DNA from: Calycina herbarum
Lineage: Eukaryota > Ascomycota > Leotiomycetes > Helotiales > Pezizellaceae
DNA length: 64,000 nt
Reading direction: 5' to 3'
Assembly: GCA_001414485.1 (NCBI GenBank)
Contig: LLEY01000220.1
Location: 22,573-86,572 of the forward strand
Below the pieces are notes generated by a model. It searched no databases. It was given only the letters and a program-made list of their open reading frames with translations, and was not told where the DNA came from. The stretch's first letter is position 1, and every line of letters starts with the position of its first letter. Shown in pieces: positions 16,131-42,039 of the stretch. Made by a program: the position numbers and the translations under genes.

Positions 16131-16277
16131 TAATTAGATTAGATTAGATTAATAATCTATAATTAATCTAATTATAAATTAATAAGATTCTAATTATTAA
16201 TTAGATTAATTAAAAGTTATTAATTAGATTATTAATTAATATTATATATAACCGGCCTAGAGATATCGAAGGCCGGG
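16131..16277. repeat. TTAGAT/TTAATTA simple repeat and GC-rich palindrome
   Basis: A TTAGAT/ATTAAT-type low-complexity tract is followed by an inverted pair CCGGCCT...AGGCCGG (16252-16276) abutting the E1 LTR. The palindrome is the only GC-rich block for kilobases. Confidence 0.6.
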
Positions 16278-16725: not shown

Positions 16726-16759
16726 CTTTAAGTACCTGCTTAGAAGTACTACTAATACG

Positions 16760-19700: not shown

Positions 19701-22599
19701 ATAAGATACTAATAATAGTAGAAATCTACTTCTTAAAGAATATTATAATATATAGTTAGAAATAGAATATAAATTACCTCTTTAAGTAGAATATAAGTTA
19801 CTACTATTAATAAGTTTATTAAAGTTATTAGAATCGGAATCTAACTCGTTAGAAATAGATCTAAGAATATATAAGCCTAAACTAGGTAAGATATAAGTAT
19901 TTATTAGAACCTTCGAAAGAGAGAATAGATAGGTATATATAGAAAATTAGAAACCTAATTTTTAAAGTCTATATTCTATATAAGGAATTAACTCTATAGT
20001 TTTAACTACTTATATAATAGTTTAGAACGAATAAGACAGAGTAATAATAGTAAGCTTTATTACTAGAAGGAAAACTATCGAACTTAAGAAACCTAGACCT
20101 AAGTAGACAGTATCTAATAAGCTATCTAGTTAGCCTAAGATAGAAGATAGATAGATAGTCGTAGACCTCTAAGAAGAAACTAGTTTATAGTAATAGCAGG
20201 GTTCTAAGAACTTTATAAGTTAACTGAAATCTAGTTTCCTAGATACGCTATCTAAGGAAACAATACTAGAAATAGGAGGCTAGTATACTATAGTCGTCTT
20301 AGTTAGAACAGTTAGAGTAATATTTTAGGAATTTAGAACTAGAAAGTTATTTAGTATAATCTTTTAAGAAATAAACAAATATAATATTAACTAAGAAACG
20401 GAAATAATATAAGAACTCTACTATCTAATAATTAGAGAGATAAATACTATCTCTGGAGAAAATCAGTTAGTAGTAAATATAAAAATATAAGAAAAGGAAC
20501 TCTAAGTTATAATCAACTCTAGAGTAATAGATAACTTTCTTTCTCTAATAGCTTTAGAAAAGCTAAACGTTCTAATTAAAAATATAAAGCTATACTACCT
20601 AGAGGTAGTTAATAGAATAGATATTACCTACTAAGATAGAATTATTAATTAATAAACTATTCTAATAAAAGTTAATATTAAAGAATACTACTTAGATATA
20701 TAATTCGATATTATTAAAATAGAGAGTAAGAAAGTAATACTTAGTATACTATAGATTTAAGAATATAATCTAGATATTAACTAGAAGGCTTAAACTATAA
20801 CCTTTAGTTAATATAATTACATAGGTTTATAATTATAACTATAAGCCTAGAACGAGGTTAGCGCTATCTCTTCTAATATACTAGAACACCTCGCTTAGAG
20901 TTCTTTATAGGTTAGCTAGCTAGCTAATAATAAAATACCTATATAGTATAGAGAATTTAAGACTTTATTTAAAAACTCGAAAGATTTATAAGCTTTACTA
21001 GAATATTACTTATAAGATTATAAGATTAAATTAAAAGAGAGTTATTACCTCTTAAAGTAGAAGCTTTAGTTATATAACTAGAAAAGCTTATAGAGAATAG
21101 AAAATTATATAAGAGAAGGTATTAAGAAGATATATATTAAGAAATCTAAGTTACTAATTACCTTAAATATACTTATTATTAAGAAGAAAGACAACCTAGG
21201 AAGAAGAGTATATATTAATTACTAAGAAGTAAATTATACTATAGTTAAAGACGCTTATCTACTACTACCTAGCTAATACTTATAAGATAAGTTAAGTAAA
21301 GTAGTACGATTTATAAAACTAGATTAATAAAATACTTATAAACTTATATAAATAAAAGTTAGAGACAAATAGAAAACAGTATTCGCTTTACTATTAAGCT
21401 TTTATAAATATATAGTTATAATATTTAGACTATATAATATACTAGCTATATACTAGAGATAAAAAAATAATATTTTAAGAGATCTTCTAAGAGTAATAGT
21501 AATCTATTACCTAGATAATATCTTAATCTTCTTAGAAAAAGAAGAAGAATATAAGAGATATATTAAAGAAGTTTTATAACAACTTATAGAAGTAAACTCT
21601 CGACTAAAACTCTCGAAATATAAATTTAGAGTAACTTAGACACTTTTCTTAGAATAGGTATTTAACTTAGAGAAAATAGAAATAGATCTAATAAAGATCT
21701 AGAATATCTTAAATTAGAAGTTACTAGAGAATATTAAGAATATATAATCCTTCTTTAGATTTATAAACTTCTATCGTCTATTTATCTAAGACTATATAAA
21801 GATTACTAAACTAATATTAGTACTAGTAAAAAAGGCTATTAACTTTATTTAGAATAAATAAGCTAAGAACGCTTTTTAGAAAATCAAAGTAAGGTTTATA
21901 GAAAAACCTATTCTATATAATTTTAATATAAATAAACCTAGTATAATTAAAATAGATACCTTAGATATAGTAGTAAGTATGATTTACTTATAACTAAATA
22001 ATAAAAAGAAACTTATATCTATTATATATTTTTCTAAAATATTTAACCTAGTATAATAAAACTATAGTATCTTTAATAAAGAATTACTTACTATAGTATT
22101 AGCTTTAGAATACTAGAGAATCTATTTATAGCTAGTAAAGTAGTAAGTTACGGTTTTATTTAACTATAAGAACCTTAGAGCGTTTATAATAACTAAGGAA
22201 CTTATAACTAGATAATTAGCTAGATAGTTAGAGATATTAGAAGAGTTTAATATTATTATTTATTATATAAAAGAAACGTTAAACACTTAAGCTAATACTC
22301 TTAGTTAGAAACCTAGATATAAGAGAAATAAGAAGTTTAAGAAGATTATAATCTTAAAAACTCTTAAGAATAAGAATTTAGCCTCTATAATTTATAAGAT
22401 TACTACTATAAAAAATAATAATCTATAGTAAGAAAAGATATAGTAGACGTAGAAGAAGAATTAGCTAGAGTTAGCTAAATAGGAAGATATACTATCTAAT
22501 CTAGTCTAGAGAAGAGATTTTACTAATATCTACTATACTATAAATAAGCGTAATAATAAAGAAAGACATAAAAATAGAAAGTTATAGGTTCTAGATTTA
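16760..22599 (+). pseudogene. E1 gag-pol remnant, interrupted by P1
   Basis: Plus-strand reading full of TAA and TAG codons. A gag zinc knuckle lies at about 17590-17632: YNYSLFSYRVNKYSKK fits CX2CX4HX4C with Cys changed to Tyr by G-to-A. The protease is near 20520 (INSRVIDNF for IDSGATGNF). The reverse transcriptase YLDN (21508-21519) stands for YLDD. RNase H lies around 21930-22140, followed by ANTLS at the RNase H/integrase linker. Every damaged signature is explained by C-to-T or G-to-A. The frame is split by P1 at 17840-19699 and ends at P2. It cannot encode active protein. Confidence 0.8.
17840..19699 (-). mobile_element. pogo/Fot1-type transposon P1, 1860 bp
   Basis: TIR starts ACGTGTATATAT and then has two tandem 17-mers of the form AGCGAACCGGCTAAATA. 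The right end is the inverse with RIP changes. TA flanks both ends (17838-17839 and 19700-19701). The transposase reads on the minus strand and is collinear with P2 (same family, 1859 bp without E2). It is inactivated by many stop codons and inserted in the gag/protease part of E1. Confidence 0.85.
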
Positions 22600-23699
22600 A
22601 CGTATATATATAGCGAACCGGCTAAATAAGCGAACTAGCTAAAACCCCGCGCCTCTACTACACCTCTACTAAATATTAAATTTCTCTATAACGAACGATA
22701 TCTTAGAAAAATAACAAAAGCCAGTTAGTCTTAGCTATCTAAGCTATGTAAAAAGACCTAAATTTACGTAGTTAAGCTACTATAAGAACCTATTCTATAG
22801 ATTACTAGAAGCTAGGTTAACGTTTACTTAATATACTTTTATAATACGATATTCTAGCTAATTTATAGAAAATAACTAAGCTAGAGGAATTAGTACTTAT
22901 TTAATATATCCTTAACCTAGCTATAAAAGGATTTCCTCTATAGATATCTATAGTTAAGAATATAGTAAATCGACTTCTTAAAGTATATAATACGCTATAT
23001 ATTAGAACGTATTAGGCTTCTAACTTTATTAAGTACTGTCTAGAACTCTAGATACGCTTCTAATAAAAATACGACTACTAGAGAGCTAAGTACGAAGACC
23101 TAGAAGTTATTCGTAGCTGGTTTAAGCTTATATAACGTATAGTAGTAAAGTATAGAATCTATAATATAAATATCTATAACTTTAATAAGACTAGGTTTAT
23201 AATAGGTATTATCTTAACTATAATAGTTATTATAAGCTTAGAAGGATATATAAGAGTAAAAAAAGTATAGCCTAGTAATTAGAAATAAGTTATAGTAATC
23301 TAGAGTATTAATACCTAAGGCTAGAGTATTCTACTATTTATAATTATTACTATAAAAAATTATCTTACTTCTTAGTACTAAAACAGTAGACTTCTACCTA
23401 ACTAGGTAATTACTATTATTAAAAATAGTTAGATAATAAATAAGAAAGATATAGATTAGATTTAATATTTTAAGAAGTATACTAAGTTTTAATCTATTAG
23501 TAGTTATCGTCTATTAGTTCTCGACGACTATAAAAGCTACTACTCTAATAAGTTTAAGGAATATTATAAGTAAAATAATATTATTACTCTTTATATACCT
23601 GCTTATTCTTCTTATATACTCTAGCTACTCGACGTTAGCTGTTTTAGCTCTTTAAAAAAGGTATATAGTTAGTAAATTAAAGATATAATACGGGCTTAG

Positions 23700-24153
23700 T
23701 ATAACGAAACTTAAACGAACTAAACAAAGATAACTAAGTCTCGAAGGTTAGTATACAGGTAAGAAGTATATATACGCTAGATTATTCACTTAGAAGTGAA
23801 CTCGTTACTTATATCAAAGATATTAAATAAGATAATAAGATTAATAACTAAAGTTAAGTACGAAGCTTCTATCTAATAGCAGACGTGCTAGTCTTATATA
23901 GAACCTTTATCCTAATTACATCGCTTATATCGCTCGCGTCGCTCGCGATTAAGGCGATCAGAGCGATATAGGCGATTACGTTACATAACTATATATAACT
24001 TCTAATATTACTATAATAGTAAAATCCTAAAATCCCTAAATACCCTTCGTATTACTAATTTCCTCCTATATTACCTTCTATTCCTAGATGTTATACCTTA
24101 TCTTATTAGAACACTATCTAGACTACTTACTATATATACTGTGATTCGTAATA
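23700..24153 (-). repeat. E2 3' LTR
   Basis: 454 bp. Contains two copies of the 9-bp unit TCGCTCGCG, where the partner LTR has three. Confidence 0.88.
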
Positions 24154-24242
24154 CTATCCCCTTCTTAGACTAGCGTATCCCTACGCTTAAGTATAGCCTA
24201 AGAAATATCGTTAAGAGACTAGCAGCCTCCCTAGTTTCTATT

Positions 24243-24806
24243 ATACTATTAACACCTCTCCTAAAAGATAAGCTTAAATAATATAGAACTCTTAACACTC
24301 TTTAAATTAAACGTTTAAGATATGAAATAATCCCTTATACTTGCTATATAAATACGAAAACCAGCTGTTAATACATTAGCGTTCCTAGTAGTTCTAAGTA
24401 CTCCGAGTACACTAGGAAGGGCAAATCTTACGATGTCGAGTTATAAAACCGAATACTCTTAATTTTTAAGTAGGAATCTATTAATACTTAGAAGCAGCGG
24501 TTATAATAGGAGGAAGAAGTAGCTTATAAGATTTAAGAAGAAGCTATATAGAAGATCCTTCGCCTATAAAAACAATAACGCTTCCTTATAGAGCAGGAGT
24601 AAGAGATGCTCCGTCGTAGTCTTACTAACCTACAAGAGCTTAATAAAGCTAATAAGAAAGAAAGAGCAGAGAAGGAGAAAGAAGAGAGGGAATTAGAGAT
24701 CGCTTAGCTAGTAGCCCCTTCTTCTTCTAGTAACCCTACTTTTATTAATAAGCTAACTCTTAATTTAGCTTTCCTTAAAGCTTTTCCTTCTAACTACGAG
24801 ATATAG
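24243..24806 (+). pseudogene. Convergent accessory frame of E2
   Basis: Plus-strand frame, opposite to gag-pol, between pol and the 3' LTR. It aligns with the E3 copy: start ATA in place of ATG, a Glu/Lys-rich middle (RRSLTNLQELNKANKKERAE) and the conserved end LAFLKAFPSNYEI. It has stops at former CAA, CAG and TGG codons. Its stop overlaps the end of pol by 17 bases, tail to tail. Function unknown. Confidence 0.7.
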
Positions 24807-27800
24807 GTAACCCTAGGTTTTAGTAGTAGAACTTCTAAAGTTCCTCTAAGTAATAGTTAAGATTACTTTTTAGCTCCTAAGTATTTTCTAAGTATAAGTA
24901 ATCTAACTATTTAATTAAATACTTTATCTTACCTTTAACGATCTTATAATTAAGAATTCTTTTAATCTTATAATTAGCGTTTAGATTAACTAGTTAAATT
25001 TCTATAAATAGGGCTAGTAGTACTCCTAGTAGTACTAGTTTAAGTAGGGATATATAGAATACTAAGTAGATGTTTATTATTTTTAGTAATACTAATTTAT
25101 AATTTAAAGGTCTCTTAACTTATTTAATCCTAAATAGTCTAAGTTTTTTATAATCTAGTTTATTACTTAGTCTTTTTATATTAATATTTTTCTATACTAA
25201 GTAGACTTTATCTCTCTCTTTTAACGTTAGCTTCTAACTACGTCGTTTATTATAGTAGTATATATTTCTTTCTACTATAAATTATAGGTCCTTTATAAGT
25301 TCCTTATATAGACTCTTAATTTTTAAGACATAAACACGAGTAAGTTAGTTATTAATAGTTATAGATAATAGTTCTCGATATACTAATAATTTATATCTAA
25401 AGTTAGTATAGAATAGTATAATAAGTATTATTTCTATTACTAAACTATTATAGGTAAACTATACTAAAAGCAGTAGCTCTACCTAGTTATCTTACTAGTA
25501 GTTTATATAATAATAAAGGTATGTTTTAACTACTTAATTTATCCTTTTATTTCCTCTATTTATTTAAAGGTAGAAAGCTATAGAGAGCTTTCTTTTTATA
25601 CCTTATTATTCTATAAGAGTAATCTAAAATTTTAAGGTAAAGAGCTTGTCTCTATCTAAGAGTATCTCTTTAAGTAGTCTATATCTTAAGACTACTTCCC
25701 TAAGGAATATAAATACTAATTTCTTAGCTATACTTAACTCTATATATACTATAAGAATTATATACTTTATAAGTCGTTCTATAATAACTAAGATTATATT
25801 ATATTTAACTCTTATTATTAGATCTTTAGATTTTAGTAGTTTAATAATAAAATCTATAAATATTAATTTCTAAGATATCTATAGTATTAGAGTAGTATTT
25901 ATCTATCTATAAAGAGTATAGTAGGAAGCTTTATTCCTAGTATAAGTATTATATTCTACTATTACTTTCTTAACTATCGTAGATAATCGATTAATATAGT
26001 AGTATTATCTTATCTTCTAGAGGGTTCTACGAATTCCTTAGTAGCCGTAAGTAGGCGTAGTATAGTATTCTTATATAAATTCTTTTATATATAAGCTAGG
26101 GACCTATAATTTCCCTTTTACGTACTAGTTATATCCTTTATATATATTCTAGATCTTATCTATCTAGATATTATTTATTATTATAATTTTATATATAGTA
26201 GGTACTAAGTCTCCGTTCTTAAGAGTTTTTAAGATTATAATCTTCTTATACTCTTTGTTTCCCTTATACCTAGGTTTTCGGCTAAGAGTATTAGCTTAAG
26301 TATTTAACGTTCCCTTTACGTATTAAATAATAATATTAAATCCTTCTAATATTTCTAACTATCTAGCTAATTATCTAGTTATAAGTTCCTTAGTTATTAT
26401 AAATGTCCTAAGATTCTTATAGTTAGATAAAACCGTAACTAGGTATTTTACTAACTATAAATAAATTCTCTAGTATTCTAAAGCTAATACTATAGTAAGT
26501 AATTCCTTATTAAATATACTATAGTTTTATTATACTAGGTTAAATGTTTTAGAATAATATATAATAGATATAAGTTTTCCTTTTTTATTTAGTTATAGGT
26601 GAATTATATCTATAGATATATCTAAGACATCTATTTCGATTATACTTAGCTTTTCTATATCAAAGTTATATAAGATAGGTTTTTCTATAAACCTTGCTTT
26701 AATTTTTTAAAAAGTATTCTTAGCTTATTTATTCTAAATAAATTTAATAGCTTTCTTAACTAGTACTAATATTAGTTTAGTAATCTTTATATAGTCTTAT
26801 ATAAATAGATAGTAAAAGTTTATAAATCTAAGGAAGGACTGTATATCTTTTATATTCTCTAGTAATTTCTAGTTTAAGATGTCTTAGATCTTTGCTAGAT
26901 CTATTTCTATTTTTCCTAGGCTAAATACCTATCCTAGGAAAAGTATCTAAGTTACTCTAAACTTATATTTCAAGAGTTTTAACTAAGAGTTTACTTTTAT
27001 AAGTTATTATAAAACTTCTAAAAGATCTCTTAAAATATTATTATTTTATCTCTAATATATAGCTAGTATATTATAAAGTCTAAATAGTATAACTATATAT
27101 TTATAAAGGCCTAATAGTAAGGCAAATACTATCTTCTATTTATCTCTAACTTTTATCTATATAAGTTTATAGGTGTTTTATTAATCTAATTTCGTAAATC
27201 GTACTACCTTATCTAACTTATCCTATAAGTATTAGCTAGGTAGTAGTAGATAAGCGTTCTTAACTATAACGTGATTTACTTCTTAGTAATTAATATATAC
27301 TCTCCTTTCTAAGTTATCTTTTTTCTTAATAATAAGTATATTTAAGGTAATTAGTAACTTAGATCTTCTAATATATCCCTTCTTAATACCTTCCTTTATA
27401 TAACTTTCTATTCTCTATAGGCTTTTCTAGTTATATAACTAAAGCTTCTACTTTAAGAAGTAATAACCCTCTTTTAATTTAATCTTATAATCCTATAAGC
27501 AATGTTCTAGTAAGGCTTATAAGTCTTCTAGGTTTTTAAACAAAGCTCTAAATTCTCTATACTATATAGGTATTTCGTTATTAGCTTTCTTACTAACCTA
27601 TAGAGGACCTTAGGTAAGGTGTTCTAGTGTTTTAGAAGAGGTGGCGCTAACCTCGTTCTAGCCTTATAGTTATAAACGCAAACCCTTATATTTATATTAA
27701 CTAAAAGTTATTTTCCTAGCTTTCTAGTCAATTTCTAGATTATGTTTCTAAATCTATAATATACTAAGTATTACTTTCTTACTTTCTATTTTATTAATAT

Positions 27801-30306
27801 TAAATTATATATCTAAGTAGTATTCTTCGATATTAATTTTTATTAGAATAGTTTACTAATTAATAATCCTATTTTAATATATAACATCTATTCTATTAAC
27901 TACCCTTAGACGATATAGTCTTATCTCTTTAATTAGGATGTTTAGCTTCTCTCAAGCTATTAGAGAAATAAAGTTACCTATTACTCTTAAGTCTATTATA
28001 ACTTATAACTTCTTTCCTTCTATTTCTATAGTTATTACTAACTATCTTTCTCCTAAAGTAGCGTCTAACTTTACTTTAATATATTAGACTTTAAAAGATC
28101 GATTTTTATAATTATAATTTCGTCTTTCCTTATCCTTATACTATAGAAAGAATCTTATACTTTCCTTATTAGCATATACTACCTTATATACTAATCTATA
28201 TTCTAGGATTCCTATTATCCTAGGAACTCCTTCTATAAATCGTTTTAGTATCTATCTATAATTATATTAGATCTATTTATAACTAGTTTCTATAATAGCT
28301 TCTATAAACCATAGCTCTCCTATATATAGATAATCTAAAGTAGCCTCTAGTATACTTATCTCTAGTTTTATATAGTAAACTTTAAATATATAGTCTCTTA
28401 AATTCTTTTCTCTAACAGCTTAAATCTATAACTAAGGAAAGAATACTACTCCTTCTTTATCTAATAATACTACTTCGTATATCTAATAATATTCTACTAT
28501 TCTAGTAGGCTCTAGTAACATTCCTTTAAATCGTTTCTATAATAACTAATCTAAAGTCAGACTTAGTTTATATTATATCTATTATACTATTATTTCCTAA
28601 ACTGTTTCTATAAACCATAGTTCTCCTACTAATAGATAGTATAATTCCTCTAGTTCTATCTTAGCCTACCTAGTTATATCAAGCTCCTTTTACTTCTAGA
28701 ATAGTATACTAAATAGTTATTATAAGTTATATTTTCTAAATACTAACCTATCGTTTCTAATTAATATAATAATAATATATTACTTAAATTCCTTTAGTAT
28801 AACATCTTTAGATAGTATCCTAAGAAAAGAGGTTTTAATTTATCTCTTAAATTCTATTAGAACTTACTATATCTATATACTAATTTTATCTAACATATTA
28901 TATATTTTCTATATATTCCCTACTTTAGGGTAGCTAGGTTTTTTAACTAGTTATCGTTCCTATTCTAGTTCCTTCTCTTTAATAGTTTTCTATCTAGTAA
29001 TTAAGCTAACTAGAGTTATCGTTTTAGAGTTATTACTTATAACTATATACGTTGTTAAGATAGTTAGGTTAACTCCTTATATTATATAAGAACTCTAGAA
29101 ATCTAGTTTCTAATTATTAATATATACTTATCGATTTCCTTATTTAAAGGTTCTAAGGAAAGCCTAAGTTTCTCTAACTTTAGAGTCTTTATTCTTTATC
29201 TCTCCTTCTAAACTAGAAGATAAGTCTAATATCTCTAAAGAACTAGTTAATAGTAGTAATTCGTATTCCTCTTAAAAAGGTTACTTAGGTTCTATTACTA
29301 ATTATATATTATAATATTCTTTAAGAAGTAGATCTCTATTATTATTAGTATCTTATATACTACTAATTCCTTCATTATTTTTAATCTAGGTTCTATATCC
29401 TTATACTTTAAGCTCCTTATCTATAAGTTTAATACGATTAGTTAAAGCTACTTATTATTAAATAGTAGTATTAATTTGTTTCTTTCTCTTAGAGTCTTTC
29501 TTCTTACTATACTTATTTACTCTATAACCTAGTTAGCTATAATTATAATATAAGTTCTACTCGCGTCGACGATTTCGCTCTTCCTAGGAAAGTCCTCCTT
29601 TTTTTAGAAAGGTTTTCTTCTATATAGCGTTTACCTCCTTACTATACTTATTAGTATAAGAGTACTTCTACTTCTCTAACCCTTTACTCTTTTCTCTATA
29701 CCTAGGGTTACTCTTTCTAAATTTATATAGACGGTTATCTAATTAGACAACTTCCTCGATTATATCTATAATAGTTAAGAATTATATATTCTACTTAGCT
29801 ATTTCCTTATAAATATATATCTTTAATCCTTAGTAAAAGAGTTTTATAAGAGTAATCGTATTCTATTCTAACTTTATTCTATAATATTAAAATTTATTAG
29901 TATAATCTATTACTAATCCGGTCTAGTATAATTCTAAAAGCTTATATATAGCTGTTTAGATTATATTAAAGTCTTTAAAGACTTTTCTAATAGTTGCTTT
30001 AAATCCTCTCTAAGATTTAAATATAATCTTAGTTAATTCTATCTTTCTATCTTTATTCTTATTTTTAAAGAAGTCTTCTAAGTATAGCTATACCTATTCT
30101 AATACTAATCCTCTAAAGTAGAAGATAGTAAAGATAGTTCGTAAGTTATAATTACCTTCGAACTTATTAGAATTAAAGTTAAAGTAAATGTCTATTTAGA
30201 GAAGAAATAAGTCGAGTTTCTTTCGCTTTCTATAATATATATCTAGTATCTTAACTTTAATAGATTCAAGTACTTTAACCTTATAGAGCTCGAGGGCGTC
30301 TAGTAT
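24790..30306 (-). pseudogene. E2 gag-pol remnant with in-frame RT deletion
   Basis: Between the former gag start (now ATA at 30306) and the pol stop (24792-24790) lie 5517 bases. That is exactly 78 fewer than E3's 5595, so the only net length difference is a deletion at 27019/27020. The lost 26 codons include the RT YLDD box. The gag zinc knuckle lies near 29525-29565 (LYYNYS-type, Cys to Tyr). The frame is closed by RIP-type stops. RNase H, integrase and chromodomain follow as in E3. Confidence 0.8.
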
Positions 30307-30469
30307 ACTAATATTATCGTCGTTCCTAGTTAACTATATACTAGTAAGTATTCTTCCAGTCGTATTTCTAGATATTCCTATAACGTTAGTTCAACTAGTA
30401 TTTAAGCTAGCTACTACAGTAGAAGTTGCTAGAGCTATAGTAACTAAACTTCTAAGCAGGTGCTTAAAG

Positions 30470-30932
30470 TATAACGAAACTTAAATAAACTAAACAAAGA
30501 TAACTAAGTCTCGAAGGTTAGTATATAAGTAAGAAGTACAGATATACTAAATTATTTACTTAGAAGTAAACTCGTTACTTATATTAAAGATATTAAATAA
30601 GATAATAAGATTAATAACTAAAGTTAAGCACGAAGCTCCTATCTAATAACAGACGTACTAGTCTTATATAGAACCTTTATCCTAATTATATTACTTACAT
30701 CGCTCGCGTCGCTCGCGTCGCTCGCGATTAAGACGATCAGAGTAATATAGACGATCACGTTACATAACCACACGTAACTTCTAATATTACTATAACAGTA
30801 AAATCCTAAAATCTCTAAATACTCTTTATATTACTGATTTCCTCCTATATTACCTTCTATTCCTAGATGTTATACCTTGTCCTATTAGAACACCGTCTAG
30901 ACTACTTACTACGTATACCGTGATTCGTAACA
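30470..30932 (-). repeat. E2 5' LTR
   Basis: 463 bp, with three copies of TCGCTCGCG. The 9-bp difference from the 3' LTR equals one repeat unit. Confidence 0.88.
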
Positions 30933-31807
30933 CTTAGATTATCTATATTACTAAGGATAATTTCTTTCCTATCTTCTACGCTATATTTAATATTATAATA
31001 ATAGAAAGTAATATCCGAGGAGGGTTCTAAGAGGCTAGGCTTCTTTTATTCGACCTGGAAAGTATAATTTCTACACTTGATCTTAAGCTAAAGACGCTAA
31101 TGCCTCTAAACTCCCTCTCGTGTTCTACTTAGCCTTAGGTTTCCTAGATACTAAATAACTCTACTAAAGCCTTATTATAGACTATATTTATTAAAGATCG
31201 AATTTCCTACTACTAAAGTAGCTCTCTAACCCCTATTTACAAGGCTATTAACTAGTTTATAAAAGGTGTATTAAAAGTAATATACTAGATAGTACTATTA
31301 AAAGCTGAGAACTAGAGACTTCGACAAGCAAATAAAGCACTAAGTAAGCGCTATAGAGCTAAAAAAACACGTCTATAGTAAGGAGAATTACTTAGCTAAT
31401 AGGAAGCGTAGGACCTATAGGATAATAGAGACGTTAGTAAGTAGATAATATAGAAATAAAGAGAAGTAGTAGTCGGAAGCTAAGAGAAGAATCACGTGTA
31501 CGGCGCTGTAGTAACTGTGGAGAGACTGGTTATAATACGCGTACCTGTAATATTATAGAAGAAGTATCTAAGAAAGAGATTTCTAAGTAGTTTTAATTAA
31601 TTAGAGGCGTTGTAGTAGAGTTACTATAATTTTAATCGCGAGCGTGGAAAATTTTAGCCGGTTCGCTTGTTTAGCCGGTTCGCTATATATACACGTTAAT
31701 TAAATAGTTAGATTACTTATATTTAGAAAATACTTAAGAGCTAAAAAGCAACTTTAACTACTACCTAGTAGAACTTTAAGAATTCTACTAATAAAACCTA
31801 GGTTTAC

Positions 31808-32370
31808 TTATATCTTATAGTTAGAAGGAAAAGTCTTAAGAAAGGCTAGGTTAAGACTTAGCTTAGACTAGAAGCTAATAGGAATAGACAGAGCTATTAG
31901 ATATATAACCTCTACCTCTTACTACTCTTTCTCTTTTCTTTCGCTTTTCTTCTTCTCTTTCTTTTCTACCTTCTTAGTAGTATCGAGTTTATTAAGAAAA
32001 CGAAGTCTTTTATAAGATATTTTATACTATCTTTCTTTTAGAAAAGCCTTCTACTTCTATAACTATAGAATTCTTACTATCGCTTTCTTCTTCTCTCTTT
32101 TAAGCTTCTTCTCTTACTTTTTAATAGAAGCCTAGTTACTAGCTTAAGAAACGTTCTTTTCCTAGACGTTATTAGTTTTATTATATTTTAGCTTTAACTA
32201 AATATATTTAGAATATTAAGAAGACTATAAAGAATTAATAAAACATTTACACTTCTAAGAAGCGTAGTAGAAGTATAGTAATATTTTATTATAAACTATT
32301 TTAATCCTTTTTATAAGTAGTATTTATTCTTCTTTCTTCTTCTATATAGAGTAGAATATAATAAAAAGGA
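31808..32370 (-). pseudogene. Convergent accessory frame of E1 (approximate start)
   Basis: On the minus strand, opposite to E1's coding strand, the frame ends PFLKTFPSNYKI followed by TAA (31810-31808). This matches the E2 and E3 accessory frames. The upstream part is eroded by RIP and the start cannot be fixed. Confidence 0.5.
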
Positions 32371-32449
32371 AAGGATACTACTAGTATCTTAACTAAGTTT
32401 CTTAGCTTATACTTAAGCGTAAGAACATACTAAGCTAAGAAGAGAATAG

Positions 32450-32895
32450 TGTTATAAATTACGTTATATATAATAAGTAGTCTAGACAGTACTCTAATAG
32501 AATAAGATATAATATCTAGAAAATAGAAGGTAATACTAGAGAGAATTAGTAATATAAAGGTATTTAGGTATTCTAGGATCTTACTATTAGATAACTGTTA
32601 GAAGTTACGTAGTAGATTCTATTAGATCTCTTAAAAGATCTAAAGAGATCTAGAGATCTAGGCTTATATAGAGATCTAGGTAGTATAAGAGGTTCTATAT
32701 ATACTAGTACGTCTACTATTAGATAGAAGCTTCGTACTTAACTTTAGTTATTAATCTTATTATCTTATTTAATATCTTTAATATAAGTAACGAGTTTACT
32801 TCTAAGTAAACAACCCGTCGCGTCTATACTTCTTACTTATATACTAACCTTCGAGACTTAGTTACCTTTATTTAGTCTGTTTAAGTTTCGTTACA
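32450..32895 (+). repeat. E1 3' LTR
   Basis: 446 bp, preceded by the purine tract AAGAAGAGAATAG, ends GTTTCGTTACA. Confidence 0.85.
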
Positions 32896-34791
32896 CTAGT
32901 CTTCTTAGAAGACTAAGTAGCAGGAGTAGATTAGATAACCTTTTTAGCTTTTAGCTCTATAGAGATATATTTATAGTATACGTATATATCTACTTCTTAA
33001 GAGATAGATCTAGTATTAACTTCGAGGTAGTAGACCTTATCTATAAAGGTAGTTATCGTCTAAAGGATTTATTATAAGGTATTATTAACTAAAAGAGAAG
33101 GAGGTAACTTAAACTTTACTACTATAGAAGAGCTAGTAGTAGCTTTACTAGTAGGTAGAGGTAGTAGTACTATAGTATAACGAAACTTAAATAAACTTAA
33201 ATAAAGGTAACTAAGTCTCGATAGTTAGTATATAGGTAAGAAGTATAGATACGCTAGTTTATTTACTTAGAAGTGAACTCGTTACTTATATTAAAGATAT
33301 TTAATAAGATAATAAGATTAATAACTAAAGTTAAGTACGAAGCTTCTATCTAATAGTAGACGTGCTAGTCTTATATAGAACCTTTGTCTCTTCTAAGTAG
33401 ATAGAATCGCTTATTATCTTAGTTAACTAGGTTACCTAGGTCGCTAGTTAACCTAGGTAATCCTTTATATTATATAACCTCTAACGTGCTTCTAATAGTA
33501 AGATCTTAGAATCTCTAAATACCTCTATATTATAGATTCTCTTCTATATTACCTTCTATTTCCTAGACGTTATATCTTATTCTATTAGAGCGCTATCTAG
33601 ACTACTTACTATATAAAACGTGATTTGTAATATATAGCTTAGAAAGAGGTCTTAGTCTTTTAAGAGCTAGTATTAATAGTAGATAGTAAGAATAAAGGTA
33701 AAGGCTCTTTAGCTAATAGCTTATTAAGCTAGCTAAGAGAGAAGCGTCGAAGCTTATTACCGCGTACGAAGGGATTTATTATAAGATAAATATATATATT
33801 TTCGTTTATAAATAGTATTATTAGTTTTAGGATATTCGTATACCTTCTTAGGCGAGAGTAAGAGTTTAGTTTTAGTATAACGGCTTTCTATAAATATACT
33901 AAAAGAAGTGCTTATAGAATAGTATCTATATTCGAAGAAAACTAAACTAAAGAGAGAAGAGAAGAGTTAGTACGCTCTGTCTCTATTTATATATACTAAG
34001 CGAGACTTCAGTAGAACCTCGGCACGTGATCCAGTCGTATATAACTGGGACTGTTATATAAGCTAAGAAAGTACTATATAAAGAGCGAGGTTCTAGAATC
34101 TAAGAATAGAGCTTTATTTCTAGTTTTAATCTTAGATTCTAAGATAAAAGCAGAGAGACTTATTAGAGTTAAACTTAAATCAGGCTTTATAATAGATATA
34201 AAGAGAGGTTTAGAAGAAGATTATAAGTTATAAGTAACTTTCTTTCTTATATATATATATATATATACTAACTTTAGAATAGTTTTAAAAGAGAGCTTAT
34301 AAATACCGGTTTACTTATAAACGAAGCTCGAGCTTAAGCTTTAACTAATAGAGACTACGAACTAGATAATATATATAGAGAATAGACGTATAAGAAGAAG
34401 GCTAGAATACTTAGAAATAGGGAAAACTATATAGAAGAGGTAGAAGAGAAGGAAGTAGTAGATAAGTTTACTCGCTACTTTGAAGAAAAGAGGACTAAGA
34501 GAGATATAAGTATCTTTATATATATAATATATATAAATATTCTATACTAACTAAGTTTTATAGTTCTCTTCTTTAAGCTAGTAGAAACAGAATAGATATA
34601 ACTATCTGATTTTGTCTATATTAGCTAGGAAGTATCTATAAACTACTGCTACGTTAGCTCTAAGCGAGAGACCTTTAAGGCTATTACTAGCTTAAAGAGC
34701 TAGAGGTTCTATATAGAGGAGAAGATAGAGAAAGAGAAGAAAGAGAGAGTAAAGAAGGAAGAAGAAGAGAAGAAGAAGAGAAGAAGAAGAG
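32896..34791 (+). pseudogene. Unidentified decayed coding-like sequence hosting a solo LTR and E3
   Basis: Stretches before and after the solo LTR, and a short tail after E3 (42045-42130), form one pre-insertion locus. A plus-strand reading is protein-like once RIP-type stops are ignored. It includes NFTTIEELVVALLVGRGSST near 33130, a Lys/Glu-rich end (KEKKERVKKEEEEKKKRRRR near 34730-34790), and a segment (34373-34440) homologous to the minus strand at 52591-52657. I do not recognise the protein. Confidence 0.4.
33176..33632 (-). repeat. Solo Ty3 LTR
   Basis: 457-bp LTR of the E2/E3 type without internal region, flanked by TATAG on both sides (33171-33175 and 33633-33637). The product of LTR-LTR recombination. 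Strongly RIP-mutated: the ends read TATAACG...GTAATA for TGTAACG...GTAACA. Confidence 0.88.
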
Positions 34792-35224
34792 TGTAACGAA
34801 ACTTAAACGAACTAAACAAAGATGACTAAGTCTCGAAGGTTGGTATGTAAGTAAGAAGTATAGATGTGCTGGGTTGTTTACTTAGAAGTGAACTCGTTAC
34901 TTGTATTAAAGATGTTAAATAAGATGATAAGATTGATAACTAAAGTTAAGCACGAAGCTCCTATCTAGATAGTAGACGTGCTAGTATATATAGAACCTCC
35001 GTTTCCCCTAAGTAGCTAACTCGCTCGTCGAGCTAGCGATCCAACGAGCTGGTTCGCCTAGCGATCTAGCGGTCCCTCTCGTTACGTGATTGTTGTAATG
35101 AAATCCTTAGATCGCTTAGCTAACCTAACCGATCCCTAACTACTATAAGAGTATTCCGATAGTGCTTAACCTGTCAGGACGCTGCCTAGTCTTTACTTAT
35201 CATATGTATATATGATTCGTGACA
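34792..35224 (-). repeat. E3 3' LTR
   Basis: 433 bp. Still has the canonical TG...CA ends (TGTAACG...GTGACA as written on the plus strand). Confidence 0.92.
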
Positions 35225-35313
35225 CTATCCCCTTCTTAGCTTAGCGTGTCCCTACGCTTAAGTACGACCTAAGAAATATCGTCAGAAGGCTAACAGCCTT
35301 CTTCTCTTTCACT

Positions 35314-35865
35314 ATGCCACCCGATCGTTTAGTGAAACGTACTGAGTATATCGCTCTTAGAAAAGAAATCAACTTATCTAAAATAAAAATGGCGTTCTAT
35401 ACTCGATGTTTAAAAGCTGGTTTTATAAATAAATGTATTGCCTCTTAAGATAAAAATCTAAATCGCTACGGTCGTTATATAAAGAATAGTAAGACTTATA
35501 ACGTTCGCGAGGTAAACCATATACTAACTATTTAAGATTAGGAGTCTGTAGATGCGTAGATCTAACGACTAGAGGACGAGGCTGATGAGGCTATAGCGAA
35601 AGTCCTTTGGGTTAATAAGTAGAAGAAGCTGCTTTATGCCTGGAAGCAGAGAATGATAGCGGCTAGTCTTAACTCTCTTAAGGAGCTAGATACTACTGAA
35701 GAATTAGAAAGAAAAGAAAAGGAGAAGGAGGAAGAAAAGAAGCGGATGGAAGAAGAGGCTGCTAGGCTAGCCGCCCTTCCTACGCCCGACGTTTCCGATC
35801 CTGCCCTTGCTCTAGGCCTCGACCTAGCCTTTCTTAAGTCCTTTCCTACTAACTACGTAATGTAG
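35314..35865 (+). pseudogene. Convergent accessory frame of E3
   Basis: ATG at 35314 opens 184 codons (MPPDRLVKRTEYIALRKEIN... to ...DLAFLKSFPTNYVM) interrupted by TAA/TAG codons. Each sits where CAA, CAG or TGG would be expected, so RIP alone explains the breaks. The centre has aromatic and basic residues. Residues about 120-150 are a Lys/Glu coiled-coil-like stretch, then AARLAALPTPDVSDPALALG. It lies antisense to the element, between pol and the 3' LTR, and overlaps the end of pol by 17 bases. Homologous frames occur in E1 and E2. No known domain is recognised; an early step of the element cycle, an RNA-binding role or an antisense regulatory role are all speculation. Confidence 0.72.
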
Positions 35866-38800
35866 GTAGACTTAGGTTTCGACGGTGGAACTCCTAAAGT
35901 TCCTCCGAGTACTAGCTAATGTTCTTTCTAGGTTCCTAAGTGTTTTCTAAATGTAGGTAATCTAACTATTTTATTAAATACTTAACCTGTCCTCTAATAA
36001 GTCTATAGTTAAGAATCCTCTTAACTTTATACTTAGCGTTTAGGTTTACTGGTTGAATTTCTATAAGTGGGGCTGGTGGTGCTCCTGGTAGTGCTGGTTC
36101 GAGTAGGGATATATGGAATACTAGGTAGATGTTTATTATTCTTAGTAGTACTAATTTATAATTTAAAGATCTCTTAATATGTTTAATTTTAAACGGTCTA
36201 AGTTTTTTATAATCTAGTTTATTACTTAGTCTTTTTGTGTTGATGTTCTTTCGTACTAAGTAGACTTTATCCCCCTCTTTTAGCGTTGGCTCTTAACTAC
36301 GTTGTTTATTATAGTAGTGTATATTTCTTTCTGCTATAAATTGTAGGTCTTCTATAAGTTCCTTGTATAGACTCTTGATTTTCGAGACTTGAACACGAGC
36401 AAGTTGGTTATTAATAGTCGTAGATAATAGTTCTTAATATACTGATAATTTATACCTAAAATTGGTGTAAAATAGTATAATAAGTGTTATTTCTGTTACT
36501 GAACTGTTATAGGCAAACTGTGCTAAGGGTAGCAGTTCTACCTAGTTATCTTACTAGTAGTTTATATAATAATAAAGGTATGTTTTAACTACTTAATTCA
36601 TTTGTTCGTTTCCTCTATTTGTTTAAGAGTGGAAAGCTATAGAGAGCTTTCTTTTTATACCTAATCGTTCTATAAGAGCGATCTAAAATTTTAAGGTGAA
36701 GAGCTTATCTCTATCTAAGAGTATTTCTTTAGGTAGTCTATATCTTAAGACTACTTCTTTAAGGAATGCGAATACTAGTTCCTTAGCTATACTTAACTCT
36801 ATATATATTATAAGAATTATATACTTTATAAGTTGTTCTATAATAACTAGGATTATATTATATTCAACTCTTATTATTAGGTCTTTAGATTTTAGTAGTT
36901 TAATAATAAAATCTATAGATATTGATTTCTAAGGTATCTATAGTATTAGAGTAGTGTTTATCTATTTATAAGGAGTATAGTGGGAAGCCTTATTCCTAGT
37001 ATAGGTATTATATTCTGCTATTACTTCCTTAACTATTACAGATAACTGATTAACATAGTAGTATTGTCTTATTCTTTAGAGGGTTCTACGAATTCCTTAA
37101 TGTCTATAAGTAGGTATAGTATAGTATTCCTATATAAATTCCTTAGCGTATAAGCTAGGAACCTATAATTTCCCTTTTACGTACTAGTTGTAACCTTTGT
37201 ATATTTTCTAAATTTTATCTATCTAGATGTCGTTCGTTGCTACTATCTCGTATATAGTAGGTACTAAGTCTCTATTCTTAAGAGTTTTTAAGATCGTAAT
37301 CTTCTTATACTCCTTATTTCCCTCGTATCTGGGTTTCTAGCTAAGAGTATTAGCTTAAGTATTTAACGTTCCTTTTACATGTCGAATAATAATGTCAAAT
37401 CCTCCTAATATCTCTAACTATCTAGCTAATTGTCTTATTATAAGTTCCTTAGTTATTATAAACGTCCTAAGGTTCTCGTAGTCGGATAAAACTATAACTA
37501 GGTATTTTACTAGCTATAAATAAATTCTCTAGTATTCTAAAGCTAATACTATAGTAAGCAGTTCTTTATCGAAGATGCTATAGTTTTATTATACTAGGTT
37601 AAATGTTTTTAAATAATATATAATAGGTATAAGTTTTCCCTTATTATTTAGTTATAGGTGAATCGCACCTACTACTATGTCTAAGGCGTCTATTTCAATC
37701 GTACTAGGTTTGTCTATATTAAAATCATATAGAATAGGTTTTTCTATAAACTTTACTTTAATTTTCTAAAAAGCATTCTTCGTCTGTTTATCCTATATAA
37801 ACTTAGCAGCTTTCTTAACTAGTACTAACATTGGTTTAGCAATTTTTATATAGTCTTATATAAATGGACAGCAAAAGTTTACGAATCTAAGGAAGGACTG
37901 TATATCTTTTATATTCTCTAGTAATTTCTAGTTTAAGATGTCTTAGATCTTTGCTAGATCTATTTCTATTTTTCTTAGGCTAAATACCTATCTTAGGAAA
38001 AGTGTCTAAGTTACTCTAAACTTGTATTTTAAGAGTTTTAACTAAGAGTTTACTTTTATAAGTTATTATAAAACTTCTTTAATATGTCCTTTATATTCTT
38101 CTTCTTTTTCTAAGAAGATTAGGATATTATCTAGATAATAAATTACTATTACCCCTAGAAGATCTCCTAAAATGTTATTATTTTATCTCTAACATATAGC
38201 TAGTACGTTATAGAGTCTAAATAGTATAACTATGTATTCGTAGAGGCCTGATAGTAAGGCAAATACTATCTTCTATTCGTCTCTGACTTTTATTTATATA
38301 AGTCTATAAGCGTTTTATTAATCTAATTTTATAAATCGTACTACCTTATCTAACTTATCTTATAAGTATTAGCTAGATAGTAGTAGATAAGCGTCCTTAA
38401 TTATAGTATGATTTACTTCTTAATAATCAACATATACTCTCCTATCTAGGTTGTCTTTCTTCTTAATAATAAGTATATTTAAGGTAATTAGTAACTTAGA
38501 TCTTCTAATATATCTCTTCTTAATATATTCCTTTATATAACTTTCTATTCTCTATAGGCTTTTCTAGTTATATAACCAAAGCTTCTGCTTTAAGAGGTAA
38601 TAACCCTCTTTTAATTTAATCTTATAATCCTATAAGCGATGTTTTAATAAGGCTCGCAAGTCTTCTAGGTTTTTAAACAAAGCCTTAAATTTTCTATACT
38701 ACATAGGTATTTCGTTATTAGCTTTCTTACTAACCTATGGAGGACCCTAGGCAAGGTGTCCTAGTACTTTAGAAGAGGTAGCGCTAACCTCGTTCTAGCC

Positions 38801-41443
38801 TTGAAGTTATAAATACAAACCTACATATTTATATTAACTAAAGGTTATTATTCTAGCCTTCTAGTCGATTTCTAGATTATGTTCTTAAATCTATAGTATA
38901 CTAAGTATTACTTCCTTACTTCCTATTTTAACAATATCGAATTATATATCTAAACAATATTCTTCGATATTGATCTCTATTAGAATAGTTTACTAATTAA
39001 TAATCCCGTTTTAGTATATAACATCCGTTCTATTAACTACTCCTAGTTAATATAGTCTTATTTCCTTAATTAGGACGTTTAGCTTCTCTTAAGCTGTTAG
39101 GGAAATAAAGTTGCCTATTACTCCCGAGTCTATTATAACTTATAACTTCTTCCCTTTTACTTCTATAGTTATTACTAACTGTTTTTCTCCTAAAGTAGCG
39201 TCTAATTTTACTTTAACATATCAGACTTCGAAAGATCGATTTTCTTAATTATACTTCTTTCTTTCTTCGTCCTTATATTATAGAAAGAACCTTACTCTTT
39301 CCTTATTAGTATATACTACCTTATATATTAATCTATATTCTACGATTCCTATAGTTTTAGGAATTTCCCCTATAAATTGCTTTAGTATTTGTTTATAGTT
39401 ATATTAGATCTATTTATAACTGGTTTCTAAAATAGCTTCTATAGACTATAGTTCTCCTATATATAGATAATCTAAAGTAGCCTCTATTATACTTATCTCT
39501 AGTTTTATATAGTAAACTTTAAATGTATAATCCCTTAAATTCTTTTCTTTAATAGCTCTAATCTAGGACTAAGGAAAGAATACTACTCCTTCTTCATCTG
39601 ATGATACTACTTCATATATCTAATAATATTCTACTATTCTAGTAGGCTCTAGTAATATTCCTTTGAATCGCTTCTATAATAACTAGTCTAAAGTCGGACT
39701 TGGTTTATATTATATCTATTATACTATTGTTTCTTAAACTGTTTCTACGAACCATAGTTCTCCTGCTAATAGATAGTATAATTCCTCTGGTTCTGTCTTA
39801 GCCTACTTAGTTATATCGAGCTCCCTTTACTTCTAGTATAATATACTAAATAATTATTATAAGTTGTATTTTCTAAATACTAACCTATTATTTCTAATTA
39901 ATATAATAATAATATATTACTTAAATTCCTTTAGTATAACATCTTCGAGTAGTGTCCTAAGAAAAGGAGTTTTAATTCGTCTTTTAAATCCTATTAGAAC
40001 TTACTATATCTATATACTAATTTTATCTAATATATTATATATTTTCTATATATCCCCTACTTTAAGGTAGCTAGGTTTTTTAATTAGTTAGCGTTTCTAT
40101 TCTAGTTCCTTTTCTTTAATAGTTTTCTGTTTAGTAATTAGGCTAACTAGAGTTATTATTTTAGGGTTATTACTTATAACTATATACGTTGTTAAGATAG
40201 TTAGGTTAACCCCTTATATTATATAAGAACTCTAGAAATCTAGTTTCTAATTATCGATATATGCCTATCGATTTCCTTATTTAAAAGTTCTAAGGAAAGC
40301 CTAAGTTTCTCTAACTTCTAGGTCTTCATTCTTCATTTCTCCTTCTAAACTAGAAGATGAACCCGATGTCTCTAAAGAACTAGTCGATAGTAGTGATTTG
40401 TATTCTACTTAAAGAGGTTGCTTAGATTCTATTACTAATTATATATTATAATATTCCCTAAAGAGTAGATCCTTATTATTATTAGTATCTTATACTCTAC
40501 TAATTCCTTCGTTATCTTTAATCTAGGTTCTATATCCTTATACTTTAAGCTCCTTATCTATAAGTTTAATATAATTAGTTAAAGCTACCTATTATTAAAT
40601 AGTAGTATTGATTTATTTCTTTCCCTTAGAATCTTTCTTCTTACTATACTTATTTACTCTATAGCCTAGTTAGCTATAATTATAACATAAGTTCTACTTA
40701 CGTTAATGATTTCGTTCTTCCTAGGAAAGTCCTCCTTTCTTTAGAAAGGTTTTCTTTTATATAGCGTTTACCTCTTTACTATACTTACTAGTATAAGAGT
40801 GCTTCTACTTTCCTAACCCTTTGCTCTTTTCCCCGTATCTAGGATTACTCTTCCTAAATTTATATAGACGGTTGTCTAGCTAGACAACTTCCTTAATTAT
40901 ACCTATAATAGTTAAGAACTATATATTCTACTTAGCTATTTCCTTATAAATATATACCTTTAATCCTCTATAAAAGAGTTCTATAAGAGTAATAATATCC
41001 TATCCTAACTTCGTTCTATAACGTTAAAATTTATTAGTATAATCTATTACTAATCTAGTCTAGTATAATTCTAAAAGCTTATATATAGCTATTTAAATTA
41101 TATTAAAGTCTCTAAAGACTTTTCTAATAGTTACTTTAAATCCTCTCTAAGATTTAAACATAATCTTAGTTAATTCTATCTTTCTATTTTTATTCTTATT
41201 TTTAAAGAAGTCCTCTAAGTATAGCTAGGCTTATTCTAGTACTAATCCTCTAAGGTAGGAGATAGCAAAGATAGTTTATAAGTTATAATTACCTTCGAAC
41301 TTATCAGAATTAAAGTTAAAGTAGATGTCTATTTAGAGAAGGAATAAGTCGAGTTCCTTTCGCTTCCTATAATACGTATCTAGTATCTTAACTTTAATAG
41401 ACTTAAGTGCTTTAACCTTATAGGGCTCGGGGGCGTCTAGCAT
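35849..41443 (-). pseudogene. E3 gag-pol remnant (chromovirus)
   Basis: From ATG at 41443 (MLDAPEPYKVKALKSIKVK) to TAG at 35851-35849 is 5595 bases, a whole number of codons. The gag region shows the retrotransposon capsid pattern (TMFKS-type F-KSWRxF near 41150). Next are a zinc knuckle (about 40665-40700, Cys lost), protease, and reverse transcriptase with YLDN for YLDD at 38126-38137, in frame with the start. RNase H and integrase follow, then KLDYKKLRPFKIKHIKRSLN and VFHISLLEP, typical of the Ty3 integrase C-terminus. A chromodomain ends the frame (about 36045-35880: ENT-EPRKN and EFHRRN). In-frame stops are of the CAA/CAG/TGG type. The chromodomain of such elements binds methylated histone H3 and guides insertion into heterochromatin. 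Confidence 0.85.
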
Positions 41444-41606
41444 ATTAACATTGTCGTCGTTCCTAGTTAACTATATACTAGTAGGTGTCCTCCCGATTAC
41501 ACCTCTAGATGTTCCGGCGACGTTGACTCAACTAGTATTCAGGCTAGCTACTATAGCAGGGGTTACTAGGGCTATAGCAACTGAACTTCTAAGCAAGTAC
41601 TTAAAG

Positions 41607-42039
41607 TATAACAAAACTTAAACAAACTAAACAAAGATGACTAAGTCTCAAAGGTTAGTATATAAGTAAGAAGTACAGATGTGCCAGGTTGTTTACTTAG
41701 AAGTAAACTCGTTACTTATATCAAAGATGTTAAATAAGATAATAAGATTAATAACTAAAGTTAAGTACGAAGCTCCTATCTAGATAGCAGACGTGCTAGT
41801 ATATATAGAACCTCCGTTTCCCCTGGGTAGCTAACTCGCTTGTCGAGCTAGCGATCTAACGAGCTGGTTCGCCTAGCGATCCAGCGGTCCCTCTCGTCAC
41901 GTGATTGTCGTAATGAAATCCTTAGATCGCTTAGCTAACCTAACCGATCCCTAACTACTATAAGAGTATTCCGATAGTGCTTAACCTGTCAGGACGCCGC
42001 CTGGTCTTCACTTATCACGTGTGCACGTGATTCGTGACA
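41607..42039 (-). repeat. E3 5' LTR
   Basis: 433 bp, same length as the partner. TATAACA replaces TGTAACG at the inner end by RIP-type changes. Confidence 0.92.

What the first reader, a model, noticed from the sequence alone, without database searches (positions are those of the whole stretch)
34792..42039. Ty3 chromovirus with a conserved convergent (antisense) accessory ORF between pol and the 3' LTR
All three Ty3 copies carry a second frame on the strand opposite to gag-pol. It is 184 codons in E3 (35314-35865), 188 in E2 (24243-24806), and eroded but recognisable in E1 (ending at 31808). The three share the C-terminal pattern LAFLK/PFLK-x-FPxNY-x and a Lys/Glu-rich helix. In E2 and E3 the stop overlaps the pol stop by exactly 17 bases, tail to tail. 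E2 and E3 differ widely outside this pattern, so the frame has been kept under selection through divergence. Its stops are only at former CAA, CAG or TGG. A protein-coding antisense gene inside a chromovirus is unusual. Extra genes near the LTR have been described in some Botrytis gypsy elements, which I recall but could not check.
Basis: partly seen in the sequence, partly recalled or inferred. Interest (0 to 1): 0.78.

Follow-up and report, generated by a model that had tools for sequence, protein, structure and literature searches.

The report
Antisense zinc-cluster gene in fungal retrotransposon
A fungal retrotransposon carries a backwards gene that looks like a DNA-binding regulator, and the DNA-binding half of that gene changes together with a block of short repeated sites in the element's own promoter, as if each version of the element carried its own private switch.

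Summary
The convergent frame is real and protein-coding in its relatives; in this window every copy is broken by RIP-type mutations. It belongs to the BRTN family, a published antisense gene of Botrytis Boty elements without known function. The family shows a Gal4-type (Zn2Cys6-like) cluster, a long coiled coil and an acidic tail.

The new observation: among 64 copies from the same genome, nearly identical in pol and in part of the LTR (transversions only), the DNA-binding half of the antisense gene falls into seven types. A block of about 90 bp beside the gag-pol TATA box, mostly built of iterated short motifs, falls into matching types (64 of 64). The LTR stretch between the two does not follow them. 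Best reading: a self-specific DNA-binding regulator with its sites in its own LTR, protein and sites inherited as a pair. Binding and the sign of regulation are untested, and the pattern was found and tested on the same data. Nearest analogues: plant VANC in action, retroviral HBZ in layout.

The parts
34792..35224 (-). E3 3' LTR (gag-pol strand; TG...CA)
   Evidence: 92.6% identical to 41605-42039 over 435 bp; TGTAAC at 34792 and GTGACA ending at 35224
34985..34993 (-). TATA box read as that of gag-pol (CTATATATA on the minus strand)
   Evidence: position; function inferred from position
34994..35085 (.). Type A array block: GAGCT-GCGATC / CTCGCTCG-like repeats, proposed binding sites
   Evidence: iteration against shuffles weak for type A (p 0.06 here, 0.14 in L031)
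35143..35151 (+). CTATAAGAG, TATA-like, candidate for the antisense promoter
   Evidence: present with up to 2 changes in 30 of 33 A, 16 of 16 B, 2 of 2 C1, 1 of 1 F, 1 of 2 D, 1 of 8 C2, 0 of 1 E, 0 of 1 G; function inferred
35225..35313 (+). Leader between LTR and antisense gene (89 nt)
35314..35919 (+). E3 antisense gene (BRTN family, type A), 201 codons plus stop by homology, seven internal stops
35398..35499 (+). Region of the six-Cys (Zn2Cys6-like) cluster; in this copy only two of the six positions still read Cys
   Evidence: (alignment with L031)
35536..35733 (+). Coiled-coil region (approximate)
   Evidence: AlphaFold2 model of homologue P0004, helices 62-116 and 121-153
35780..35919 (.). 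Overlap of the antisense gene with the pol tail (about 140 nt)
35966..36289 (-). Pol fragment with SH3_Tf2-1 domain
   Evidence: Pfam E 1.9e-9
41605..42039 (-). E3 5' LTR, also with a type A array (from 41809)
23698..24155 (-). E2 3' LTR; partner 30468-30934
   Evidence: 88.9% identical over 467 columns
23902..23993 (.). Type E array block (ATCGC/GCGAT repeats); same type in the partner LTR from 30672
   Evidence: iteration p 0.004
24243..24860 (+). E2 antisense gene (type E), broken; start uncertain
31754..32359 (-). E1 antisense gene (type D), broken; no pol match directly beyond it
32603..32694 (.). E1 type D array block (GATCT repeats; GGATCC in relative L032); a like array stands in the LTR at 16277-16727
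   Evidence: iteration p 0.003

Best explanation
The antisense frame is a BRTN-family gene for a self-specific DNA-binding regulator. Its N-terminal two thirds, a Zn2Cys6-like cluster followed by a coiled coil, would bind the iterated sites beside the gag-pol TATA box in the element's own LTR. Its acidic, Trp-containing tail would be the effector, more likely to activate or to counter silencing than to repress. The array lies between the gag-pol TATA box and the antisense gene, so in the 3' LTR one set of sites could serve both promoters. Protein and sites travel as a matched cassette on a common element backbone and exist in several types. Shown here: homology to BRTN, cysteine pattern, gene layout, third-position excess of transversions in several comparisons, iterated blocks in most types, matching of types. 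Inferred: binding, dimer formation, promoter use, sign of regulation and the reason for the diversity.
For: BRTN homology, E 4.3e-44. Six-Cys pattern in 96 of 120 listed homologues, canonical Zn2Cys6 spacing in 84; each Cys kept in 55 or 56 of 56 aligned. Weak but agreeing matches to Zn2Cys6 domains: Pfam Zn_clus in 29 of 56 at E up to 0.1, GAL4 first in the PDB profile search at E 0.16, all 5 Foldseek matches, 12 of 14 second-look rows. Acidic, Trp-bearing C-terminal 45 residues in 99% and 96% of 92 homologues. Convergent pol piece in 30 of 32 loci. Array types nest in aORF-N types in 64 of 64 copies; A versus B: array 21.8%, aORF-N 21.7%, intervening U3 0.2%, leader 1.6%, pol 0.5% transversions. 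Class-level exact Mantel, array against aORF-N r 0.57, p 0.006, no other segment significant by that measure. C1 and C2 share the aORF-N type and the CCTAGG/GTCGAC motif although their intervening U3 differs by 12.9%.
Confidence: 0.65

Rival explanations
1. Linkage only: array and aORF-N both come from older, recombined element lineages and stay together because they lie within a few hundred bp. The protein acts elsewhere, for example on host genes or in nuclear entry of the cDNA.
For: Short distance; few classes; the leader also correlates with the array by k-mer distance; aORF-N types are old, with better matches in other named genera for 5 of 7.
Against: The U3 stretch lying between array and gene is shared by A, B, C1 and F and differs from that of C2, D, E and G, so it has been exchanged independently; array against that stretch r -0.02. 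Linkage alone does not explain why the block beside the TATA box is iterated and differs by type while its neighbours do not.
Confidence: 0.2
2. The protein is a repressor: resident copies shut off their own type (copy-number control, like phage immunity), and new types spread because they escape.
For: Matched types on one backbone; array beside the TATA box; the layout would allow self-regulation.
Against: The acidic Trp-bearing tail looks more like an activation region, by recalled resemblance; most resident copies are broken, 148 of the 150 scored places having stops, so little repressor may be made.
Confidence: 0.2
3. The antisense transcript, not the protein, matters (double-stranded RNA, silencing or small RNAs as discussed for other antisense ORFs).
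For: Such roles are discussed in PMC7264820 (parts 1 and 2 read); Boty-type elements make small RNAs in Botrytis (PMC8365987, passages).
Against: Third-position excess of transversions and conserved Cys across 56 homologues point to a selected protein.
Confidence: 0.08
4. Chance open frame kept only because it lies opposite the pol end.
For: The last 46 codons do overlap pol.
Against: The N-terminal two thirds lie outside pol and have homologues in seven named genera; 2 of 150 scored own-genome places are free of stops.
Confidence: 0.01

Closest known systems
BRTN, antisense gene of Boty-like Ty3/gypsy elements (Zhao et al. 2011, seen only as a citation; PMC7264820 parts 1-2 read; PMC8365987 passages)
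   Different: I could not compare Boty LTRs; the Zn2Cys6-like reading and the matching LTR arrays appear in none of the papers I saw.
VANC proteins of Arabidopsis VANDAL transposons (PMC5735166 abstract and section 9; PMC10398659 abstract)
   Same: Element-encoded, sequence-specific factor; targets are tandem repeats in the element's own non-coding DNA that change fast between related elements, along with the protein.
   Different: DNA transposon, sense gene, unrelated protein (DUF1985/DUF287); binding and anti-silencing are shown there and only inferred here.
HBZ of HTLV-1 (abstract starts in the search listing)
   Same: Antisense gene read from the 3' LTR side; nuclear regulator acting on the LTR.
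   Different: bZIP protein, human retrovirus; no type-matched arrays known to me; no homology.
Gal4-type Zn2Cys6 transcription factors of fungi
   Same: Six-Cys spacing, Arg/Lys before the third Cys, coiled coil after the cluster, acidic tail.
   Different: Carried by a retrotransposon, about 200 aa, no middle homology region; Pfam score under cut-off in the members printed.
Lambdoid phage repressor/operator immunity types (recalled, no call)
   Same: Matched regulator and site exchanged as a cassette on a shared backbone.
   Different: Phage helix-turn-helix repressor; repression unproven here.
Antisense ORFs of plant elements (Grande gene23, RIRE2, Retand, PvRetro13; PMC7264820)
   Same: Antisense ORF between pol and 3' LTR; nuclear location reported for Grande.
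   Different: No homology tested here; no matched LTR arrays described in the parts read.

Membership tests
BRTN (Boty antisense gene) | Sequence homology to BRTN | tested here: met
   P0016 'Putative BRTN', E 4.3e-44 with a profile of four related proteins
BRTN (Boty antisense gene) | Antisense, between pol and 3' LTR of a Ty3/gypsy element | tested here: met
   Convergent pol piece in 30 of 32 loci; LTR upstream in E3
BRTN (Boty antisense gene) | Transcribed antisense gene | not testable with these tools
   No RNA data
Zn2Cys6 (Gal4-type) DNA-binding domain | C-x2-C-x6-C-x5..12-C-x2-C-x6..8-C | tested here: met
   84 of 120 listed homologues and L032. Type A, that of E3, has 8 residues in the second gap, so it departs from the strict spacing
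Zn2Cys6 (Gal4-type) DNA-binding domain | Pfam PF00172 curated cut-off (21 bits) | tested here: not met
   13.6, 15.3 and 13.6 bits in the members printed; L031 none; hence 'Zn2Cys6-like'
Zn2Cys6 (Gal4-type) DNA-binding domain | Fold of the binuclear cluster | tested here: inconclusive
Zn2Cys6 (Gal4-type) DNA-binding domain | Zinc and DNA binding | not testable with these tools
   Needs protein
VANC-type self-specific system | Iterated targets in the element's own non-coding DNA, differing with the protein between relatives | tested here: inconclusive
   Types match in 64 of 64, Mantel p 0.006, but no targets are proven and type A is weakly iterated
VANC-type self-specific system | Homology to VANC (DUF1985, DUF287) | tested here: not met
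   Neither is among the Pfam matches at E up to 10 for L031 and L032
VANC-type self-specific system | Anti-silencing | not testable with these tools
   No chromatin or expression data
HBZ | bZIP domain | tested here: not met
   No bZIP among the Pfam matches; a Cys cluster instead
Ty3/gypsy chromovirus (host element) | Reverse transcriptase, integrase, chromodomain | tested here: met
   RVT_1 2.2e-9, rve 6.7e-4 (under its curated cut-off), SH3_Tf2-1 1e-12, Chromo 3e-9 in relative L032; SH3_Tf2-1 1.9e-9 in E3 itself

The most novel reading that the evidence does not exclude
Fungal chromoviruses carry a modular private-control system: an antisense gene for a Zn2Cys6-like protein and its own LTR operator array. 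Several old specificity types, shared between genera, are swapped as matched protein-plus-site cassettes onto one spreading element backbone. This would be a retrotransposon counterpart of phage immunity types or of VANC anti-silencing.
Probability: 0.42. Interest if true: 0.87.

Novelty: new variant of a known kind. Interest (0 to 1): 0.73.

Why it matters
Antisense accessory genes of LTR retrotransposons have no known function according to the review read here (PMC7264820), which covers plants and Boty. If this reading holds, one large family of them gains a concrete, testable role: type-specific control of the element's own promoter. It would show DNA-binding specificity and target sites evolving as exchangeable pairs in retrotransposons, supply a natural set of matched DNA-binding domains and sites, and help to explain how one element backbone supports several co-existing types in a genome that destroys repeats by RIP.

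Tried and rejected

Rows left out: 8 of 72 copies lacked an anchor (L016, L027, L028, L053, L055, L056, L072, L074). By eye, five of these (L016, L027, L053, L055, L072) show a C2-like array, and their best aORF match is a type C protein. L028, L056 and L074 could not be judged. For L028 only its second, E2-like frame was taken; for L068 its second frame replaced the first. L027 was also left out of class C. About 80 of the 150 scored own-genome places were never fetched, and 568 of 718 candidates were never scored by the tool. Cluster cut-offs (0.10 and 0.12) were my choice.
Full report
WHAT IS IN THE WINDOW. The window lies in an unnamed 68.8-Mb, 379-contig assembly. Its part from about 16 to 52 kb has 23-36% GC, as expected of RIP-altered repeats. 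E3 is a 7.2-kb element with LTRs at 34790-35224 and 41605-42039 (TG at 34792) and gag-pol on the minus strand. Pol pieces give SH3_Tf2-1 in E3, and RVT_1, rve (under its cut-off), SH3_Tf2-1 and Chromo in relative L032, so the chromovirus label stands.

END OF THE GENE. All three window copies have a TAG where open relatives have Trp, 18 codons before a common end ('GGTPEVPPSTG' and the like). By homology the frames end at 35919 (E3), 24860 (E2) and 31754 (E1). In 30 of 30 loci with a pol match the antisense stop lies 20 nt beyond the same point of the chromodomain; in L031 the pol tail, after its first stop, stays open for 51 codons. The last 46 codons of the antisense gene are thus partly held by pol.

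WHO IT IS. The E3 frame (X at stops) finds two Hymenoscyphus albidus proteins, E 7.3e-35 and 4.8e-29. A four-protein profile finds 150 proteins at E up to 1 among the 7,993 candidates scored, 120 of them listed: 'Putative BRTN' of Botrytis cinerea (E 4.3e-44) and proteins of Hymenoscyphus, Cadophora, Lachnellula, Rutstroemia, Sclerotinia and Pseudogymnoascus. BRTN is the antisense gene of Boty-like elements; the original paper I saw only as a citation, and a review says the function of such antisense ORFs is not known (PMC7264820, parts 1 and 2 of 3 read). In the genome of the window 718 candidate places were found and 150 scored; all 150 match, and 2 have no stop.

IS IT UNDER SELECTION? RIP makes only transitions, so I counted transversions by codon position outside the pol overlap: L032/E1 1,0,9 (p 0.0007); L001/L005 4,3,12 (p 0.02); L001/L006 3,2,11 (p 0.01; not independent of the last); L031/L015 22,18,40 (p 0.006); L031/L066 35,23,43 (p 0.05); L031/L001 29,24,42 (p 0.07). 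Not skewed: L015/L001 31,26,42 (p 0.13), L066/E2 17,11,20 (p 0.27). Columns within class: A 16,10,12, B 0,0,3, C2 2,4,10 (6 of 8 copies). The most distant pairs even show a first-position excess. This fits constraint while elements were active, saturation at large distance and neutral noise after death.

THE UNEXPECTED PART. Along pairs of copies, pol differs by 0-2% in transversions between subfamilies while the first two thirds of the antisense gene differ by 16-35%, as does an LTR block about 200-400 bp upstream (L001 against L005 is the exception, 1-7% in the gene). Reading that block shows that it lies directly upstream of the gag-pol TATA box and in most types consists of iterated short motifs that differ by type: D GGATCC (in E1 AGATCT), E ATCGC/GCGAT, B GCTAGAC with AGGTCGC, C ACCTAGG and GTCGAC, F AGTCGC. 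In 12 copies tested, repeats exceed dinucleotide shuffles at p 0.01 or less in nine (types B, C2, D, E, F, G), at 0.038 in C1, and not in type A (0.06, 0.14); of 48 control segments six reached 0.05. Over all 64 copies the mean z of the array is 1.96 (A), 3.83 (B), 2.81 (C) and 3.4-6.6 (D to G), against -1.3 to 1.3 for adjoining U3 and 1.1-2.7 for R/U5.

CO-VARIATION. Sixty-four of 72 copies had all anchors. Clustered by purine/pyrimidine (RIP-proof) distances, the N-terminal part (aORF-N) gives seven types (A 33, B 16, C 10, D 2, E, F, G 1 each), and array clusters nest in them without exception, C dividing into C1 (2) and C2 (8). The U3 stretch between array and gene forms two clusters (52 and 12), the leader one of 60, pol one of 63; the C-terminal non-overlap part forms seven, largest 49. 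A and B differ by 21.8% in the array and 21.7% in aORF-N, but by 0.2% in the intervening U3, 1.6% in the leader and 0.5% in pol. Pol differs by 0.5-3.2% between types other than D; the 11-12% for D comes from E1, which has no pol beside its gene (L032 against L031: 0-1%). The intervening U3 has been reshuffled: A, B, C1 and F have one form, C2, D, E and G the other. The two pairs closest in aORF-N are the two closest in the array (C1/C2 4.4 and 12.4%; E/F 12.9 and 13.0%). At class level the exact Mantel test gives r 0.57, p 0.006 for array against aORF-N and no significant value for the other 12 pairs tested, uncorrected. It holds with C merged (p 0.007). With k-mer distances it is p 0.016-0.036, but there the leader correlates about as well (p 0.024-0.073). 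The test was suggested by the same data. I tried to fetch a hold-out, and the server did not answer.

IN THE WINDOW. E3 has type A arrays in both LTRs. E2 has type E in both, one with an extra unit. The LTRs at 16.5 and 32.7 kb, which I take as those of E1, both carry type D by eye. A lone LTR near 33.2-33.6 kb looks like type C2.

AGE OF THE TYPES. The N-terminal parts of A and B are closer to a Cadophora gregata protein (58%) than to each other (47%) or to any other own type; C1 and G are closer to Lachnellula, and D to Botrytis BRTN, than to other own types. F is barely closer to an unnamed outside protein than to E, and E is closest to F. So five of seven types have a better match in a named genus than in their own genome; the window's genus is not known, so at most one of those three genera could be its own. 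Old types on a nearly identical backbone call for exchange of the cassette by recombination.

HOW IT MOST LIKELY WORKS. The protein binds its own array, probably as a dimer. In the 5' LTR this would set gag-pol transcription; in the 3' LTR it would also reach the antisense promoter, for which CTATAAGAG at 35143 is a candidate, frequent in types A, B, C1 and F. One effector tail with a changing binding half suggests one action with a changing address, most simply activation or anti-silencing. VANC in Arabidopsis is a demonstrated precedent for a self-specific element-encoded factor with fast-changing tandem targets (PMC5735166, abstract and section 9; PMC10398659, abstract). HBZ is a precedent for an antisense gene that acts on the LTR (search listing). 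Diversity could be favoured because dead copies titrate the factor, because silencing follows the old sites or, if the factor represses, because new types escape. None of this is tested here.

VERDICT. Its probable nature as a Zn2Cys6-like regulator and the matched LTR arrays appear in none of the papers I found (searches).

Noticed in passing
window 16277-32897: Nested insertions: E2 (about 23698-30934) interrupts a minus-oriented fragment (22598-23699 plus 30933-31698), which in turn seems to interrupt E1, whose LTRs lie at 16277-16727 and 32449-32897; E1's antisense gene has no pol directly beside it.
   Followed up: partly
window 23902 and 30672: The two LTR arrays of E2 differ by one GTCGCTCGC unit, so the arrays change in repeat number.
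   Followed up: no
L001-L032 and E2; pol just after 'SENT': The conserved Trp position of the chromodomain reads as a stop in 30 of 30 loci, while another Trp nearby is a stop in 26 of 30. RIP is the likely cause, but a real early stop is not excluded.
   Followed up: no
P0111 (Pseudogymnoascus destructans, 337 aa): A BRTN-like zinc-cluster and coil part joined to a protein that carries Pfam PF11917, possibly another mobile-element gene.
   Followed up: no
L068: Two antisense genes of different type lie about 1.3 kb apart in one direction.
   Followed up: no
L056: A further array-like block with AGAGTC/GACTCT repeats, 529 bp upstream of its antisense gene; pairing unclear.
   Followed up: no
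window 33175-33641: A lone LTR with a type C2-like array.
   Followed up: no
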